Positions 13,491 to 22,099 of a stretch of 39,504 bases of DNA are shown here, piece after piece. Both the position numbers and the translations under genes were made by a program. The notes under the pieces were generated by a model. It did no database searches. It saw only the letters and a list, made by a program, of their open reading frames with translations, and was not told where the DNA came from. The DNA is from a bacterium (GTDB taxonomy: Bacteria; Bacillota; Clostridia; Lachnospirales; Lachnospiraceae), in the NCBI GenBank assembly GCA_028727105.1, contig JAQYOU010000045.1, positions 1-39,504 on the forward strand. The letters run 5' to 3'. Within the stretch, counting starts at the first letter, position 1; the number at the start of each line of letters is the position of its first letter.

Positions 13491-16400
13491 ATGGAATTAT
13501 GCCGTTATCCCACACCCGAAAAGAAACGCTTCTACGAAATCGAAACGATAGAGATTCCGATTGTATATAACAAATACGGCGACCACGATCCGAACGGTCT
13601 CTTATATGTGCTCAAAAAAGACGCCGACCACGTCCGCGAATGTGCCATGCAAAACTTTTTGCAGGATATTCCCCAGCCCTGTGATGAAGTAAAACCGCTC
13701 GTCATCCGTGCAAATAAAGGTGACACCGTTGTCATCACATTTACCCACTCCTTAAACCGCCCACTCTCTATCCACGTGCAGGGTCTGGCGTATGACGTTC
13801 AGACCTCGGACGGTGCAAGCGTGGGTTATAACAAGGATTCTACCACCTTCCACCGGATCACCTACACCTGGTACGCCAAACATGAGGGAGTTTATATCTT
13901 CCACGACATGGGAGATCCGACAGGCAATGAGGATGGTACAAATGTGCATGGTCTGTTCGGTGCGATCATCGTGGAAGCTCCACAGTCGCGCTGGCTGGAT
14001 CCCGAGAACGGAAAAGAGCTGGAAAGCGGTCTGTTTGCAGATATCTACCACCCCACAAACCCTGCCTTCCGTGAATATGCCGTGTTTTTCCACGACGAGC
14101 TGGAGATCAAGGACAAAAACGGCAATCAGCCGCTGGATCACCACACCGGTCTGCCCTCTGCCACCACCGGCATCAGCTACCGCTCAGAACCGATGCGAAA
14201 CCGGCACCCGCTGTCCCACAACCCGGCAGATTCCGGCGAGGACATCTCCATGAGTTCGTGGGTATACGGCGATCCCGCGCCTCCGATCCTAAAAGCGTAC
14301 GTCGGCGATCCGTCCAAGATCCGCCTGATCCACGGCGGCATCAAGGAAACTCATGTGTTTCATCTCCACAATCACCAGTGGCGTCTGGAGGGCGAAAATC
14401 CAAATTCCACGATCATCGATTCCATCTCCATCAGCCCGCAGGAGTGCTACACGCTCGACATTCTCCACGGCGCGGGAAGCCTGAATGGAATGATCGGTGA
14501 CGCGATCTTCCACTGCCACCTCTACCCGCATTTTCACGAGGGCATGTGGACGCTGTGGCGGATCTACGACCGTCTGGAGGACGGCACCGGACGCCTGCCG
14601 GACGGAACTGTCATTCCCCCGCTGATGCCGCTTGCAGACCGGAAAGCGCCCCCGAAGAAAGACAAAAAGCACCCGGGCTATCCAAACTTTATCAATGGAA
14701 CCTTCGGGGAAGCGCCTCTGCAGCCGCCCCTTGGCATTCTGGACGCAGACGGAGAAAACAAGATCGAGCCCACAGATCTGGAAGTAAACAATTTTGTGCC
14801 GAACTTTGAGCCGGGCGCGCTCTACACCGACACCTGCCCGTGTCACACAGACGCGAAACACGGTTGTCCGTGTCCTCCGAATGGAAAACCTCCCTATCCG
14901 CATGAAGATGAATTTCCGGTAAAGGTTTTTGAGATAGCAGTTGTCCAAGCAAAAATCACCTATAACCGCTATGGCTGGCACGACCCCCAGGGAAGATTTT
15001 TCGTATTGAAGGAAGAACTGGAACGCCACGGCGGGCTGGATGCCTATATCAAAAAAGTTGAGAGCTGCAAGCTCCGCGTGGAGCCCCTTGTCATCCGCGC
15101 AAACGCAGGGGACTGCATTGAGATCCGTCTGACGAATCTCCTGCCGGAATATATAGAGGAAAGCCCCTTCCAGATGCGCACACTCACAGACATTGTGGGA
15201 TATCATATCCACCTCGTCAAATTTGACACGATCGTATCAGACGGCGCTGCCAACGGCTGGAATAACATCGCAGGCGCCAGACGCTACGAGACACTGATCG
15301 AGCGATTTTTCGCAAATACAGAGCTGAAAACCGTCTTTTTCCACGATCACCTGTTTGCAAATTCCCATCAGCAGCACGGCGTGTTCGGTGCACTGATCAT
15401 AGAGGAAGCCGGAGCCACCTTCCACAACATCCGAAACGGCAAAAAACTGAACTTCGGCACAAGAGCCGTCATCAAGCGAAGGGACGGCACCTCCTTCCGT
15501 GAATTCGCCCTGTTTGTGCACGACTTTGCCCTCCTGTTTGACAGAGACGGGAACGCACTGAATCCGCCGGAGGTTCCCGGCGCGCATGATGACCCGGGCG
15601 TGATGGGCATCAACTACCACTGTGAACCGATGCGCGAGCGCTTAAAGTGCGGTGACGATCCGGCCTATATATTCAGTTCCTACGTGCATGGCGACCCGGC
15701 AACACCAATCCTTGAGACATATCCCGGAGATGAACTGATGATCCGACTGCTGGATGGTGCCCACGAAGAACAGCACTCGTTTAACCTGACGGGTATGACA
15801 TGGAAAAAGGAGATTGACGACGTGTTTTCACCGGATACCGCCTCCCAGACTCTGGGTATCTCGGAGGCATTCAATATTCACGTCACCAAGCCCTACGGCC
15901 CTGGTGACTACCTCTACTATTTCGGCGGAATCGACGATGCATGGCTCGGTCTGTGGGGGATCATCCGGGCATATGCGCGCCCGGATAAGCGCCTGAAACC
16001 GCTCTGCAAGGGCAAGGATCAGATCCTTCCGCTGCCGCCGTGTCCCGGCAAGGATGCCGTAATCCGCAAATATGAGATTGCAGCCGTACAGAAGGATATC
16101 CCGTACAACTGCCACGGAGACCATGATCCCGACGGATTGCTGTTCGTTCCGATCGAAGATCTCGATCGCTGCAAGCATAATGATTACAAGCCGAAGCCAC
16201 TGATCCTGCGCGCCAACGCCGGAGAATGGATCGAGGTCACACTGCACAACCTGTTCGACCCGAAAAATCCGGTTCCCTACTTTGACTATCCAAGTGTTCC
16301 GTTAGACATGAAACACAAGCCATCCATGCGCGTCTCCCTCAACCCGCAGTACCTCCACTATGATCCGGTCTGCGACTCCGGCATCAATGTGGGATACAAC

Positions 16401-17201
16401 AACAGAGAGCAGACCGTCGGTGTCGGTGAGAGCAAAAAATACCTCTGGTATGCGGATCAGGAATACGGTCCCTGCATCATACAGTCCTTCGGCGACATGC
16501 GAAACCACCGCTATCACGGTCTCTTCGGTGCGATTCTCATCGAACCGCCGGGGGCAAAATGGTATAAAAGCTGTTCACTGACAAAAGCTGTATATGAGGA
16601 GGAAGCGGTGATCGCCGCACCCGGAACCGACACCTTCCGCGAATGTGTCCTGCTCATTCAAAACGGCATCCGCATGCTGGATAAAGATGGGGAACTGGTA
16701 AAAACCGCAACAGATGACGGCGAGGAAGTCGACGATGAGGACACCGGCGAAAAGGGCTACAACTATCGCTCGGAGCGCTTCGCCAACAGACTTCACAAAG
16801 ACCCTCGAGTCTCCAAGGTTTTCAGTAGCCGCGTGCACGGGGATCCCGCCACCCCTGTTTTTACAGCGTATCCGAATGAACGGGTCATCTTCCGCACAAT
16901 GATGCCTGCGGATAAGCCGCGCAATGTTGGTTTTACCATCCACGACCACGAATGGCGGCAACAACCGGAAGACTCGCACTCCCGGATCATTCCCCTGCAA
17001 GGTGCCGTCAGCATCGGAAATACGTTCAACATGGAGCTGATGGACGGCAGTACCTGTCCCGGCGACTACCTCTACCGCTCCGGCAGCTTCAGATGGGATG
17101 TTGAGTCCGGCATGTGGGGCATCTTCCGTGTCCTGCGCAATGGTTTCGGTCACAAGTGCAAAAACGCATGCCGGAAACTGTTTGAAAAAATATGCAAATA
17201 A
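13491..17201 (+). CDS. Six-cupredoxin multicopper oxidase, MnxG/ceruloplasmin-like
   Basis: 1236 residues built of three repeats of about 370-400, each a pair of cupredoxin domains. Repeats open with IPIVYNKYGDHDPNGLLYV (~20), ITYNRYGWHDPQGRFFV (~485) and IPYNCHGDHDPDGLLFV (~865). Repeat 1 ends with both C-terminal copper motifs: HVFHLHNH (H288, 291, 293, 295) and HCHLYPHFHEGM (H341-C342-H343 ... M352), giving type 1 copper plus trinuclear ligands. Repeat 2 opens with HIH (572-574) and HDH (618-620), the missing half of the trinuclear site. Repeat 3 lacks a full set. A CPCHTDAKHGCPCP linker (449-461) may bind metal. There is no signal peptide. Size and six-domain layout resemble MnxG, the spore Mn(II) oxidase of marine Bacillus; the substrate is inferred. 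GGAGG precedes the ATG. Confidence 0.85.
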   Translation: MELCRYPTPEKKRFYEIETIEIPIVYNKYGDHDPNGLLYVLKKDADHVRECAMQNFLQDIPQPCDEVKPLVIRANKGDTVVITFTHSLNRPLSIHVQGLAYDVQTSDGASVGYNKDSTTFHRITYTWYAKHEGVYIFHDMGDPTGNEDGTNVHGLFGAIIVEAPQSRWLDPENGKELESGLFADIYHPTNPAFREYAVFFHDELEIKDKNGNQPLDHHTGLPSATTGISYRSEPMRNRHPLSHNPADSGEDISMSSWVYGDPAPPILKAYVGDPSKIRLIHGGIKETHVFHLHNHQWRLEGENPNSTIIDSISISPQECYTLDILHGAGSLNGMIGDAIFHCHLYPHFHEGMWTLWRIYDRLEDGTGRLPDGTVIPPLMPLADRKAPPKKDKKHPGYPNFINGTFGEAPLQPPLGILDADGENKIEPTDLEVNNFVPNFEPGALYTDTCPCHTDAKHGCPCPPNGKPPYPHEDEFPVKVFEIAVVQAKITYNRYGWHDPQGRFFVLKEELERHGGLDAYIKKVESCKLRVEPLVIRANAGDCIEIRLTNLLPEYIEESPFQMRTLTDIVGYHIHLVKFDTIVSDGAANGWNNIAGARRYETLIERFFANTELKTVFFHDHLFANSHQQHGVFGALIIEEAGATFHNIRNGKKLNFGTRAVIKRRDGTSFREFALFVHDFALLFDRDGNALNPPEVPGAHDDPGVMGINYHCEPMRERLKCGDDPAYIFSSYVHGDPATPILETYPGDELMIRLLDGAHEEQHSFNLTGMTWKKEIDDVFSPDTASQTLGISEAFNIHVTKPYGPGDYLYYFGGIDDAWLGLWGIIRAYARPDKRLKPLCKGKDQILPLPPCPGKDAVIRKYEIAAVQKDIPYNCHGDHDPDGLLFVPIEDLDRCKHNDYKPKPLILRANAGEWIEVTLHNLFDPKNPVPYFDYPSVPLDMKHKPSMRVSLNPQYLHYDPVCDSGINVGYNNREQTVGVGESKKYLWYADQEYGPCIIQSFGDMRNHRYHGLFGAILIEPPGAKWYKSCSLTKAVYEEEAVIAAPGTDTFRECVLLIQNGIRMLDKDGELVKTATDDGEEVDDEDTGEKGYNYRSERFANRLHKDPRVSKVFSSRVHGDPATPVFTAYPNERVIFRTMMPADKPRNVGFTIHDHEWRQQPEDSHSRIIPLQGAVSIGNTFNMELMDGSTCPGDYLYRSGSFRWDVESGMWGIFRVLRNGFGHKCKNACRKLFEKICK

Positions 17202-17476: not shown

Positions 17477-18172
17477 TCACATATTCTTATGTTTGCATAT
17501 TAATTCTTTTTTTGCCAAAGGTTTAAGATAATTCTTCTTCAGTGTTCTTTCATCTCCAAAGAAAAACCTTTCCGATTTGGATAATGTATGATTTTCTACT
17601 TTCAATTCGGTAAGTTTTAATGTACAAATGAGATCTGCAACTTGAAACAGCCTATAATCTGCCGGAATCACCTTGCGAAATTCCACATTCTCCAACAATG
17701 CATTAAAAACAGATGATAAAATTCTGGTCACTTCAATCTGTCCATTATCATAATAAACCTTTATAACGTCAAAACTGCAAAAGTAATTGTAATTATCACG
17801 AATAAATGCAGACAACTGTTTACTAACCTTCCCTGCAGCTTCAACAGAACCCTCAATGTGCTTTTTCTCGATATATATCGATTTAAAGCTAATATCCATG
17901 TGCCTAATGAATGCCATCATCTTCATCAGAATCTTCTGTCTATCCTTTACTGCATATCCACGATATTCTTCCTCTGATCTTATTACTGGGCCAGCATGTA
18001 CACAATGATTTGACCATCCAATGTTATTAAGTTCTCCCTCCAGTGCTTTCAAATCATCTGAAATATCTACATTCTGTTCATGCATTACCATAGAAATAAT
18101 ATAATATGGCGTTCGAAAATCATATTGTCCAAAATCACCGGATTCATCTACAAATATGCTTGGTTCGTTCAT
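17477..18172 (-). CDS. DUF3800-domain protein
   Basis: 231 residues from the ATG at 18172, which has GGAG five bases upstream; the track start six codons earlier overlaps that site. The protein opens with the DUF3800 hallmark IFVDESGDFG, keeps a middle acidic segment (FDVIKVYYDNG) and the late motif FQVADLICTLKL. These acidic positions lie as in RNase H-like folds, and the family is suspected to be a nuclease, but activity is unproven. Genes of this family in Clostridia are often scattered and preceded by conserved RNA structures, and here a three-hairpin leader ending in a terminator-like stem sits just before the start. The gene probably travels as a mobile or defence-type unit. Confidence 0.85.
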   Translation of the reverse strand: MNEPSIFVDESGDFGQYDFRTPYYIISMVMHEQNVDISDDLKALEGELNNIGWSNHCVHAGPVIRSEEEYRGYAVKDRQKILMKMMAFIRHMDISFKSIYIEKKHIEGSVEAAGKVSKQLSAFIRDNYNYFCSFDVIKVYYDNGQIEVTRILSSVFNALLENVEFRKVIPADYRLFQVADLICTLKLTELKVENHTLSKSERFFFGDERTLKKNYLKPLAKKELICKHKNM

Positions 18173-18194
18173 ACTTTCTCCATAATACAAAAAT

Positions 18195-18284
18195 GGCGGG
18201 TGTCTTACCCGCCGTTTGGTGGACCCGGGTCTTTCGACCAGCCCAAATATTTTATGCGTTTACACGCAACAGATTCATATCTGT
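18195..18284 (-). ncRNA. Structured 5' leader of the DUF3800 gene (DUF3800-motif RNA candidate)
   Basis: Reading the minus strand from the predicted start near 18284 there are three stems in a row. The first is TGCGT-GTAA-ACGCA, with a GNRA loop. The second is GGTC-GAAA-GACC, also with a GNRA loop. The third is GGCGGGT-AAGAC-ACCCGCC followed by ATTTTT, which is an intrinsic terminator form. The DUF3800 ATG comes 23 bp later. Published comparative work by Weinberg and colleagues described several DUF3800-motif RNAs upstream of such genes; which class this would belong to I cannot say. Confidence 0.6.
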
Positions 18285-18290
18285 GCCTTT

Positions 18291-18319
18291 ATTATATGCT
18301 ATTATTTTCAAAAAATCAA
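18291..18319 (-). promoter_or_regulatory. Promoter of the DUF3800 leader RNA
   Basis: TTGATT (18314-18319) and a consensus TATAAT (18291-18296) are 17 bp apart on the minus strand, placing the transcript start just before the first leader hairpin. Confidence 0.7.
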
Positions 18320-18499
18320 TATGAGCTCCAAAAAAATTCTTTCAATCATATACCTAATAAAAAATCGCTGTCTAAGGTAAAACATGCCCTGCCTATATTC
18401 TGACGCAGCCAGAACAAATCTGCTCTCATTCAATAAATCCATCGTTGTTATTTTTCCGGAACTGATCAATACCTCCACAGCTCCGGTTCCTACTGACAT
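18308..18499 (-). CDS. Unrecognised 63-residue ORF fused to the 75-bp repeat
   Basis: The ORF starts MSVGTG inside repeat copy A and has AGGT just before the ATG, as does the truncated GNAT gene at 22037 behind copy B. The remainder (VEVLISSGKITTMDLLNESR) is not recognised and ends in a hydrophobic tail overlapping the DUF3800 promoter. It is probably a fragment whose start is supplied by the repeat, and may not be a functional gene. Confidence 0.3.
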   Translation of the reverse strand: MSVGTGAVEVLISSGKITTMDLLNESRFVLAASEYRQGMFYLRQRFFIRYMIERIFLELILIF

Positions 18500-18560
18500 T
18501 CTACCTGTGAATCCACCCTGCGTATAGGTATTTTTTCAACGATATGTGTCAATTTTTCAG
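18486..18560 (-). repeat. 75-bp repeat, copy A, carrying a start codon
   Basis: It matches 22024-22099 closely: the first 27 and last 33 bases are nearly identical, with a variable centre. On the minus strand it begins CTGAAAAATTGACACATATC and ends with AGGTAGA-ATG-TCAGTAGGAAC, so it brings a ribosome binding site and ATG. Confidence 0.85.
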
Positions 18561-20102: not shown

Positions 20103-20408
20103 TCAAACATAATCAAAAATGCCCTGAATCGCGTCCGTAATATTCATAATGTCCGGCATATGTATGTGATCGATTTTAGAATAACCTCTGGCTCTCAGAT
20201 CCAGTAATGCCAGCTTTTCACAATGAACGTATCCATCCATACTTCCTGCCTTCACAAAAATACGTAACGCACCGTCTTCTCCATTTTTTGAAATTGGACA
20301 TCCGATAACCTCGCCCGTCTGATTGAAAAAGTCCTTGCTTGTAACAAGCACAGGACTTTTTATATTTTCCACTTTTATAATATCTCCCTGATGTATCGGT
20401 TCCTTCAT
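20103..20408 (-). CDS. mazF: MazF/PemK-family toxin (endoribonuclease)
   Basis: 101 residues with the MazF/PemK barrel order: HQGDIIKVEN at the start, SPVLVTSKDFFNQTGEVIGC in the strand that carries the usual catalytic region, and the C-terminal helix. MazF toxins cut mRNA at short sequences and arrest growth when the labile antitoxin is lost. The start overlaps the antitoxin stop by four bases (ATGA), a standard toxin-antitoxin coupling. Confidence 0.75.
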   Translation of the reverse strand: MKEPIHQGDIIKVENIKSPVLVTSKDFFNQTGEVIGCPISKNGEDGALRIFVKAGSMDGYVHCEKLALLDLRARGYSKIDHIHMPDIMNITDAIQGIFDYV

Positions 20409-20650
20409 TCCCAGACCTCTCTTCCCATCTGCTCGCCCCAGTCATATTCGCCGTCTAAGTCTAACTGTCCTCCAAACTCAGCAGCTCTTTCTTCCAATGT
20501 TTTATGTCTGAATGGTTTCATCAGAATAATCATTCCATCAGAAATCTGAACATCCAAAATATCATCGATCGCTATGTTTGCTTTCTGCAGATCATCTTTC
20601 GAAATCCGGATCCCCTGACTATTCCCCCAAGGTTTCACCTGTGCCTGCAT
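20405..20650 (-). CDS. mazE: MazE/AbrB-family antitoxin
   Basis: 81 residues from the ATG at 20650, which has GGAGG seven bases upstream. The longer ORF in the track (to 20806) has no ribosome binding site and crosses the promoter region. QVKPWGNSQGIRISKDDLQK is the typical MazE/SpoVT-AbrB DNA-binding hairpin, and the acidic C-terminus (DLDGEYDWGEQ) would wrap the toxin. It should bind the palindromes just upstream together with MazF and autorepress the operon. Confidence 0.85.
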   Translation of the reverse strand: MQAQVKPWGNSQGIRISKDDLQKANIAIDDILDVQISDGMIILMKPFRHKTLEERAAEFGGQLDLDGEYDWGEQMGREVWE

Positions 20651-20669
20651 ATAAACACCTCCATTTTCA

Positions 20670-20688
20670 GTATATACATAGTATATAC
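20670..20688 (-). promoter_or_regulatory. mazEF operator
   Basis: Two copies of the self-complementary octamer GTATATAC, separated by ATA, lie 20 bp before the mazE start and just downstream of a TTGACG (20689-20694) that can act as -35. This is a likely binding site for MazE or the MazEF complex. Confidence 0.65.
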
Positions 20689-20829
20689 CGTCAAATATAC
20701 AAATGCAACTTTGAATTTGTTCCCTTTTCCAAACATACCTTACGATCAGCATAATGCAAATTGCTGTAAGCCAAACAGCAATCTTGATCAAAGGGATCAT
20801 TACCAAAAATCCCCCTGTTGCTACATTTA

Positions 20830-21709: not shown

Positions 21710-22037
21710 TCTTATGTACCTCCCCGGTCTCAAAATTTAGCGGCAATTCATAATATAGAAAATCCGTCCAACAGGTATTCTCTGCATATAGGTTCTGCTT
21801 TCCCCGATACGCAAACCCAAGTTTTTCATACATATGCTGCGCCGGAATGTTTGATGCCAGCGTATCCAGCCGGATCGCTCTCTTTCCTTTTTCCATTGCC
21901 AGCGAAACGATTGCTTCCATCATTCTTTTTGATATACCTTTTCCCTGATATTCAGGAGTTACTGTAAGAAGATGCAAGGAAGCCACCTCCTCATCATTCA
22001 GATTCTGACTCCTCACATTTCCTGTTCCTACTGACAT
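21672..22037 (-). pseudogene. GNAT N-acetyltransferase, N-terminally truncated and fused to repeat copy B
   Basis: 121 codons. The CoA-binding motif LHLLTVTPEYQGKGISKRMM and the late strands SNIPAQHMYEKLGFAYRGK are typical of GNAT acetyltransferases. The first 60-70 residues of the fold are missing. Instead the ORF begins MSVGTG, encoded by the end of the 75-bp repeat, exactly as in the ORF at 18499. The truncated product could be translated but probably cannot fold as a full enzyme. Confidence 0.65.
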
Positions 22038-22099
22038 TCTACCTGTGAATTCTTACCATGTATAGACATATTTTTCAACGATATGTGTCAATTTTTCAG
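22024..22099 (-). repeat. 75-bp repeat, copy B, carrying a start codon
   Basis: The partner of copy A at 18486-18560 in the same orientation. The last bases supply AGGT and the ATG of the truncated GNAT ORF. The other end stops 20 bp from the ilvB stop codon. Confidence 0.85.

What the first reader, a model, noticed from the sequence alone, without database searches (positions are those of the whole stretch)
18195..18319. Three-hairpin RNA with GNRA loops and a terminator stem directly in front of a DUF3800 gene
A clean promoter starts an approximately 90-nt leader with stems capped by GUAA and GAAA loops and a final GC-rich stem plus U-run, just before the start codon. DUF3800 genes are known to be accompanied by several classes of conserved RNA motifs of unknown role. 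Control could work through termination, or the RNA could be a partner or target of the DUF3800 protein, as in an RNA antitoxin or selfish element.
Basis: partly seen in the sequence, partly recalled or inferred. Interest (0 to 1): 0.72.

Follow-up and report, generated by a model that had tools for sequence, protein, structure and literature searches.

The report
RNA partner of DUF3800, borrowed by phages
A short folded RNA made just in front of a DUF3800 gene belongs to a catalogued but unexplained RNA family, and the same RNA without the gene turns up inside the tRNA arrays of many large phages, which suggests it is the RNA half of a toxin-antitoxin-like bacterial defence that phages copy to disarm it.

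Summary
Window 18245-18198 is the Rfam family DUF3800-XI (RF02975), 68.5 bits against a cut-off of 37.8. A sigma-70-like promoter (18319-18291) precedes it; a GC stem with U-run (18213-18187) follows, just ahead of the DUF3800 start codon (18172). The RNA family is known; its function is not. New here: (1) DUF3800 genes found by protein alone carry the RNA directly upstream in 79 of 80 loci (the last is cut by a contig end). Both hairpins covary: 97.7% of cells paired, 77 double-change cells against 13 in shuffles. (2) DUF3800 is predicted to have an RNase HII-like fold. (3) Promoter-RNA-gene moves as a bare cassette; RNAs without the gene are common. (4) The RNA without DUF3800 occurs in about 19 large-phage lineages, in 14 of 20 cases within 600 nt of a tRNA gene (4 of 80 for bacterial units). 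There the second hairpin is kept with changed sequence, but the terminator U-run is mostly lost (4 of 20 against 72 of 79), so the RNA probably acts in trans. Best reading: RNA antitoxin/partner of a DUF3800 nuclease, as in type III-like AbiF, with phage copies as decoys. No function was tested.

The parts
18291..18319 (-). sigma-70-like promoter TTGATT-17-TATAAT for the RNA; transcription start expected near 18284
   Evidence: 10 of 12 matches; such sites also occur by chance, 8 found against 5.2 expected; upstream homology between close units begins at the promoter region
18255..18284 (-). two variable 5' stems (ACAGAU-AUGA-AUCUGU and UGCGU-GUAA-ACGCA)
   Evidence: fold; a 5' hairpin of 6 bp or more within 26 nt of the core occurs in 54 of 79 bacterial units, 9.0 expected; its sequence is not conserved
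18198..18245 (-). DUF3800-XI RNA core (RF02975): bulged P1 hairpin with GNRA loop, linker, 5' part of P2
   Evidence: cmscan 68.5 bits, cut-off 37.8, E 2.9e-13; own model R1 83.9 bits (the window is in the training set)
18187..18213 (-). P2 stem GGCGGGU-AAGAC-ACCCGCC plus U-run: intrinsic terminator in bacteria, second hairpin of the RNA in phages
   Evidence: covariation in 6 of 7 pairs; U-run in 72 of 79 bacterial units but 4 of 20 phage copies
17477..18172 (-). DUF3800 gene, 231 aa, ATG at 18172 behind GGAG; predicted RNase HII-like fold with invariant D9, E10, D142, D180
   Evidence: Pfam PF12686 39.4 bits; alignment A1; AlphaFold2 pLDDT 91; best solved fold 1eke RNase HII, Z 8.2, rmsd 4.0 over 164 residues; Foldseek 2dfh E 5e-5

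Best explanation
The locus is a two-part RNA-protein module. A promoter makes a ~95-nt structured RNA. Most transcripts stop at the P2 terminator; the leaky remainder reads into the DUF3800 gene, so the RNA is in excess over the mRNA. The RNA is not mainly a cis switch: its two hairpins bind the DUF3800 protein, an RNase HII-fold nuclease, and hold it inactive (or form its working RNP), as the antitoxin RNA does in type III and AbiF systems. The module spreads as a bare promoter-RNA-gene cassette and most likely serves phage defence. Large phages carry the two-hairpin RNA alone, often inside tRNA arrays, as a decoy antitoxin. Shown here: RNA family, order of parts, covariation, fold prediction, cassette boundaries, phage copies and their tRNA context. 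Inferred: protein binding, toxicity, neutralisation, defence, decoy role.
For: RF02975 match. RNA upstream of 79 of 80 protein-found DUF3800 genes, 67-111 nt before the start with two at ~160 nt; also upstream of the two family members with no RF02975 call, one diverged (L114) and one split by a contig end (L263). Covariation 0/500 shuffles. No conserved antiterminator: z -0.32, terminator stem stronger by 5 kcal. Asymmetry: 32 of 62 RNAs in the family have DUF3800 downstream, 8 of these truncated; other RNAs stand alone or with internal deletions. Genomes exist with solo RNA and no DUF3800. RNase HII-like fold. Phage solos: 20 sites on contigs up to 193 kb, most near or inside tRNA arrays, no DUF3800 in the 15 viral records tested, P2 of at least 6 bp in 13 of 20 with 1.3 expected, terminase, tail and RNA ligase genes beside them. 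Precedents read: AbiF RNA antitoxin with the same order (PMC12373285) and phage pseudo-ToxI decoy (PMC3475682).
Against: No tandem repeats in the RNA, unlike classical type III antitoxins. No toxicity, binding or defence data. Flanking genes are mostly housekeeping; only a few are defence genes. PADLOC has no model for it. The hosts of the phages are unknown; nearest isolates infect Bacillota such as Bacillus and Listeria, and isolated phages lack the RNA. Phage copies were found by a pattern that fixes part of P1, so P1 conservation there is partly by construction.
Confidence: 0.58

Rival explanations
1. Cis-regulatory attenuator: the RNA senses something (its own protein, a ligand or a phage signal) and sets readthrough into DUF3800.
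For: A conserved intrinsic terminator ends shortly before the start codon in nearly all units; a conserved bulged hairpin could be an aptamer or the protein's operator. AbiF RNA combines cis termination and trans neutralisation (PMC12373285).
Against: No conserved alternative pairing with the terminator. The RNA is kept without the gene and without the U-run in phages. One solo next to a tRNA-Leu site (L256) has lost a core pair, but many other solos are intact.
Confidence: 0.17
2. Mobile genetic element in which the RNA is an end, guide or scaffold for DUF3800 acting as transposase/nuclease.
For: Near-identical units (e.g. L061/L063, 98%) with unrelated flanks, homology limited to promoter-RNA-gene; internal-deletion copies keeping both ends of the gene; absent at the matching site in congeners; RNase H-like fold.
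Against: No terminal repeats or target duplications; 1-4 divergent copies per genome; transcript starts inside the unit, so no guide from flanking DNA; deletions L038 and L060 are out of frame, i.e. pseudogenes; phage tRNA-array copies are not explained.
Confidence: 0.12
3. The RNA is originally a phage RNA that the DUF3800 module senses or cuts; the bacterial copy is a mimic that keeps the protein quiet until phage RNA titrates it.
For: Phage copies are more diverse in P2 and sit in tRNA arrays; cow-rumen-3 and drum RNAs of phages end in or abut the same hairpin.
Against: Many phage lineages keep the RNA, which is unexpected for a trigger of host defence.
Confidence: 0.1

Closest known systems
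Rfam RF02975 DUF3800-XI RNA (described in the 2017 survey of 224 candidate RNAs; that paper is not held here)
   Same: Sequence and structure over the full 48-nt model, gene order with DUF3800
   Different: The Rfam model stops inside P2; the full RNA includes the terminator stem and a variable 5' hairpin. Phage tRNA-array copies are not described in the papers held
AbiF RNA (RF03085) / RCd22-AbiF of Clostridioides difficile (PMC12373285)
   Same: SigA-type promoter, short structured RNA, intrinsic terminator, then the protein gene; RNA from the same survey; horizontally mobile
   Different: AbiF is an Abi_2 (AbiD/F) protein linked to ancestral Cas13, not RNase HII-like; its RNA has two repeated motifs; function was shown experimentally there, not here
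Type III toxin-antitoxin systems ToxIN, CptIN, TenpIN
   Same: RNA gene upstream, terminator between RNA and protein gene; phage decoy RNA known (pseudo-ToxI, PMC3475682)
   Different: Antitoxin made of tandem pseudoknot repeats; ToxN-fold endoribonuclease
Rfam RF03083 cow-rumen-3 and RF02958 drum RNAs
   Same: cow-rumen-3 ends in a hairpin like P1; drum directly abuts a P1-P2 element in two phage lineages; both lie in phage genomes
   Different: Longer 5' domains; no DUF3800 gene; the window scores only 25.4 bits for cow-rumen-3

Membership tests
Rfam RF02975 DUF3800-XI | Covariance-model score above the curated cut-off | tested here: met
   68.5 bits against 37.8, full model 1-48
Rfam RF02975 DUF3800-XI | Bulged hairpin with GNRA loop, stems kept by compensatory changes | tested here: met
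   A2: P1 5 pairs and P2 6 pairs with double changes, 0/500 shuffles
Rfam RF02975 DUF3800-XI | DUF3800 gene directly downstream on the same strand | tested here: met
   PF12686 at 17477-18172
Type III toxin-antitoxin system | RNA gene upstream of the protein gene with an intrinsic terminator between | tested here: met
Type III toxin-antitoxin system | Antitoxin built of tandem repeats | tested here: not met
   one core per bacterial unit (alignment A2)
Type III toxin-antitoxin system | ToxN-type endoribonuclease fold | tested here: inconclusive
   best matches are RNase HII-like; ToxN-type chains were not listed, which does not exclude them
Type III toxin-antitoxin system | Protein toxic alone, neutralised by direct RNA binding | not testable with these tools
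   needs expression and co-purification
Riboswitch / transcription attenuator | Conserved antiterminator competing with the terminator | tested here: not met
   z -0.32 over 79 sequences; competitor within 3 kcal in 5
Insertion sequence / transposon | Terminal repeats and target-site duplications, multiple similar copies | tested here: not met
   boundaries compared in 8 groups, none visible; 1-4 divergent copies per genome
OMEGA RNA of TnpB/IscB | Guide sequence read from DNA flanking the element | tested here: not met
   promoter and RNA ends lie inside the conserved unit; flanks unrelated while RNA ends are conserved
Rfam RF03083 cow-rumen-3 | Score above the curated cut-off | tested here: not met
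   25.4 bits against 86.7

The most novel reading that the evidence does not exclude
DUF3800-XI is the antitoxin RNA of a phage-defence module with an RNase HII-fold effector, and large rumen and gut phages routinely carry decoy copies of it in their tRNA arrays. Parts of the unexplained drum and cow-rumen-3 RNAs would be the same decoy. Phage tRNA arrays would then also be arrays of RNA counter-defences.
Probability: 0.42. Interest if true: 0.82.

Novelty: new variant of a known kind. Interest (0 to 1): 0.63.

Why it matters
Eleven DUF3800 RNA classes are catalogued (own knowledge of Rfam), and no function for them was found in the papers held here. Free-standing copies in phage tRNA arrays, with the terminator tail mostly gone but both hairpins kept, separate the RNA's own function from gene control. 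They also supply natural reagents (bacterial unit, solo RNA, phage RNA) for a direct test of the antitoxin/decoy model. If right, a DUF becomes an RNase HII-fold toxin or effector held by RNA, several orphan phage RNAs gain a role, and phage tRNA arrays gain a second class of counter-defence.

Tried and rejected
cow-rumen-3 as the identity of the window RNA: below cut-off, and no match in 196 genomes of the order (nothing rang in the control genomes, so this is not proof of absence). Riboswitch-type antitermination: no conserved competitor pairing. Transposon ends: none in eight groups of near-identical units. Mini-protein from deletion copies: joints in L038 and L060 are out of frame (and reading). 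Solo RNAs as terminators of upstream genes: only 4 of 31 lie within 60 nt of a same-strand stop. Defence-island partner gene: none recurrent. Other DUF3800 subfamilies in the same genomes carry no Rfam RNA at E 0.1, so the association is specific to this protein subfamily. Empty-site searches gave presence/absence but no clean junctions. A first viral pattern missed one base and found nothing; the corrected one is. Pattern hits L290, L291 and L302 are judged chance (weak pairing or no P2).

Full report
What is there. On the minus strand, a sigma-70-like promoter (18319-18291) is followed by a ~95-nt stretch folding into four stems. The last is a GC stem with U-run that is the only terminator-like site in the 1.2-kb region scanned. 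The DUF3800 gene starts at 18172, 15 nt after the U-run, behind a ribosome site. cmscan names the core DUF3800-XI, RF02975, 68.5 bits against a cut-off of 37.8.

Is the association real and general? RF02975 occurs in 44 of 299 genomes sampled from the window's family, at 62 sites (the family is probably Lachnospiraceae, judging by the named relatives). To avoid bias I searched public genomes with the protein alone (A1). Of 80 DUF3800 loci, 79 show the RNA directly upstream, usually 67-111 nt before the start codon (two at ~160 nt), and in the 80th the contig ends inside the terminator. Hosts named in the records include Lachnospiraceae, Treponema, Fibrobacter, Saccharibacteria and Acidaminococcaceae, mostly gut and rumen assemblies, so some assignments may be binning errors. 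On the unfitted MAFFT alignment of 79 RNAs both hairpins covary: 97.7% of cells paired, 77 cells with changes on both sides, 13 expected, 0 of 500 shuffles. The U-run follows P2 in 72 of 79. Other DUF3800 subfamilies in the same genomes have no Rfam RNA.

The protein. AlphaFold2 gives a confident model (pLDDT 91) whose best matches are RNase HII (1eke, Z 8.2, rmsd 4.0 over 164 residues; Foldseek 2dfh E 5e-5). Z near 8 is modest, but RNase HII/H2/H3 chains fill the top of both lists. Invariant D9-E10 (DESGD), D142 (YYDNGQ) and D180 (QxAD) are in the places expected of an RNase HII-type DE..D..D site (alignment; the comparison with the RNase HII active site is from general knowledge). PMC10910872 independently described DUF3800 near Cas12a2 as an RNase H fold.

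How it moves. Units up to 98% identical sit in unrelated flanks, and homology covers only promoter, RNA and gene, about -80 to a few tens of bases past the stop in most groups. No terminal repeats or target duplications were seen. In the window's own genus the searched relatives (several incomplete) show no such unit at this place; it sits in a rearranged copy of a peptide-autoinducer promoter region, and relatives have other units or a solo RNA elsewhere (naming of the autoinducer genes is by inspection). In another genus the unit lies beside a tRNA-Leu; three congeners lack it, and one keeps the RNA but not the gene, with a broken core pair.

RNA without the gene. In bacteria 30 of 62 RNAs have no intact DUF3800 behind them. 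Some are cut by contig ends (L047, L051; the rest of the L051 unit is L263), some are internal-deletion remnants (L038, L060, L065, L067) and others show no remnant. Eight further units have a shortened or shifted DUF3800 frame, which may include assembly errors. The window's genome itself has a second, solo copy between fliD and an AbiE pair (gene names by inspection). Some of these genomes have no DUF3800 match at all. Protein without RNA was not seen in this subfamily.

The phage copies. An exact core pattern in IMG/VR found, besides ordinary units, solo RNAs on large viral contigs: about 19 independent contig groups giving 20 sites. The contigs reach 193 kb and carry terminase, tail, RNA ligase and other phage genes. 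None of the 15 viral records tested (13 with the solo RNA, 2 with cow-rumen-3) encodes DUF3800 in the sequence held. In 14 of 20 sites a tRNA gene lies within 600 nt, against 4 of 80 bacterial units; in L284 and L294 the tRNA begins within a few nt of the RNA. Rfam itself calls DUF3800-XI at most of these sites. P2, which the pattern did not constrain, is kept: a stem of at least 6 bp in 13 of 20 with 1.3 expected, with very different sequences, yet the U-run is mostly gone (4 of 20 against 72 of 79). The free positions of P1 covary. So in phages the two-hairpin RNA is maintained without the gene and mostly without a terminator, perhaps processed out of tRNA-array transcripts. ROOL lies in three of these arrays; drum RNA abuts the element in two lineages; cow-rumen-3, also in phage tRNA arrays, ends in a P1-like hairpin.

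Mechanism. A cis-only switch does not explain copies that have neither gene nor terminator, and no antiterminator is conserved. The order promoter-RNA-terminator-gene, RNA surviving without protein but not the reverse, and phage-borne RNA alone match RNA-antitoxin modules. The close precedent is the C. difficile AbiF RNA, shown to neutralise AbiF by direct binding (PMC12373285). Phage decoys of an RNA antitoxin are known for ToxIN (PMC3475682). I therefore take the RNA as antitoxin or obligate partner of an RNase HII-fold DUF3800 nuclease, and the phage copies as decoys. The first step is about 58% likely; the decoy step is less certain (about 42%) because phage hosts are not assigned. Their nearest isolates infect Bacillota. 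Binding, toxicity and defence are untested.

Noticed in passing
L092 (G000:C82) around 15708-15755: Second, solo DUF3800-XI RNA in the window's own genome, 16 nt behind the fliD stop and convergent with an AbiEi/AbiEii pair (names by inspection).
   Followed up: partly
window 18425-18560 and 22014-22099: Repeated promoter region of a small autoinducer-like peptide gene (MEKKS...LDEQTA) seen intact in congeners; in the window the DUF3800 unit replaces the peptide gene.
   Followed up: partly
L300:2972-3134 and L274:11384-11548: drum RNA (RF02958) directly abuts a DUF3800-XI-like element in two unrelated phage contigs.
   Followed up: partly
L269:694-821 and L270:1023-1157: cow-rumen-3 RNA lies in phage tRNA arrays and its 3' hairpin resembles DUF3800-XI P1; no DUF3800 gene.
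   Followed up: partly
L303:6888-8105 and L301:1210-1857: RNA ligase genes in the same phage tRNA/RNA regions, typical of repair after host anticodon nucleases.
   Followed up: no
L063:6159-6266, L073, L064, L225, L226, L227: A ~100-bp repeat (TAAATACTGGAAAGTTGAGAAAATACACGAG) follows the DUF3800 gene in three loci and also occurs elsewhere in other genomes.
   Followed up: partly
L043:8358-8598 and over 100 places in its genus: Highly repeated, self-complementary dispersed repeat.
   Followed up: no
window 20103-20806: PemK/MazF-like toxin with an AbrB-like small gene just upstream (the second by inspection).
   Followed up: no
window 13491-17201: 1236-aa protein with repeated multicopper-oxidase-like modules.
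   Followed up: no
L114 upstream of DUF3800: Diverged RNA (UGUCUUGGGC-GUUA-AGCUC...) below the Rfam cut-off, so RF02975 undercounts.
   Followed up: partly
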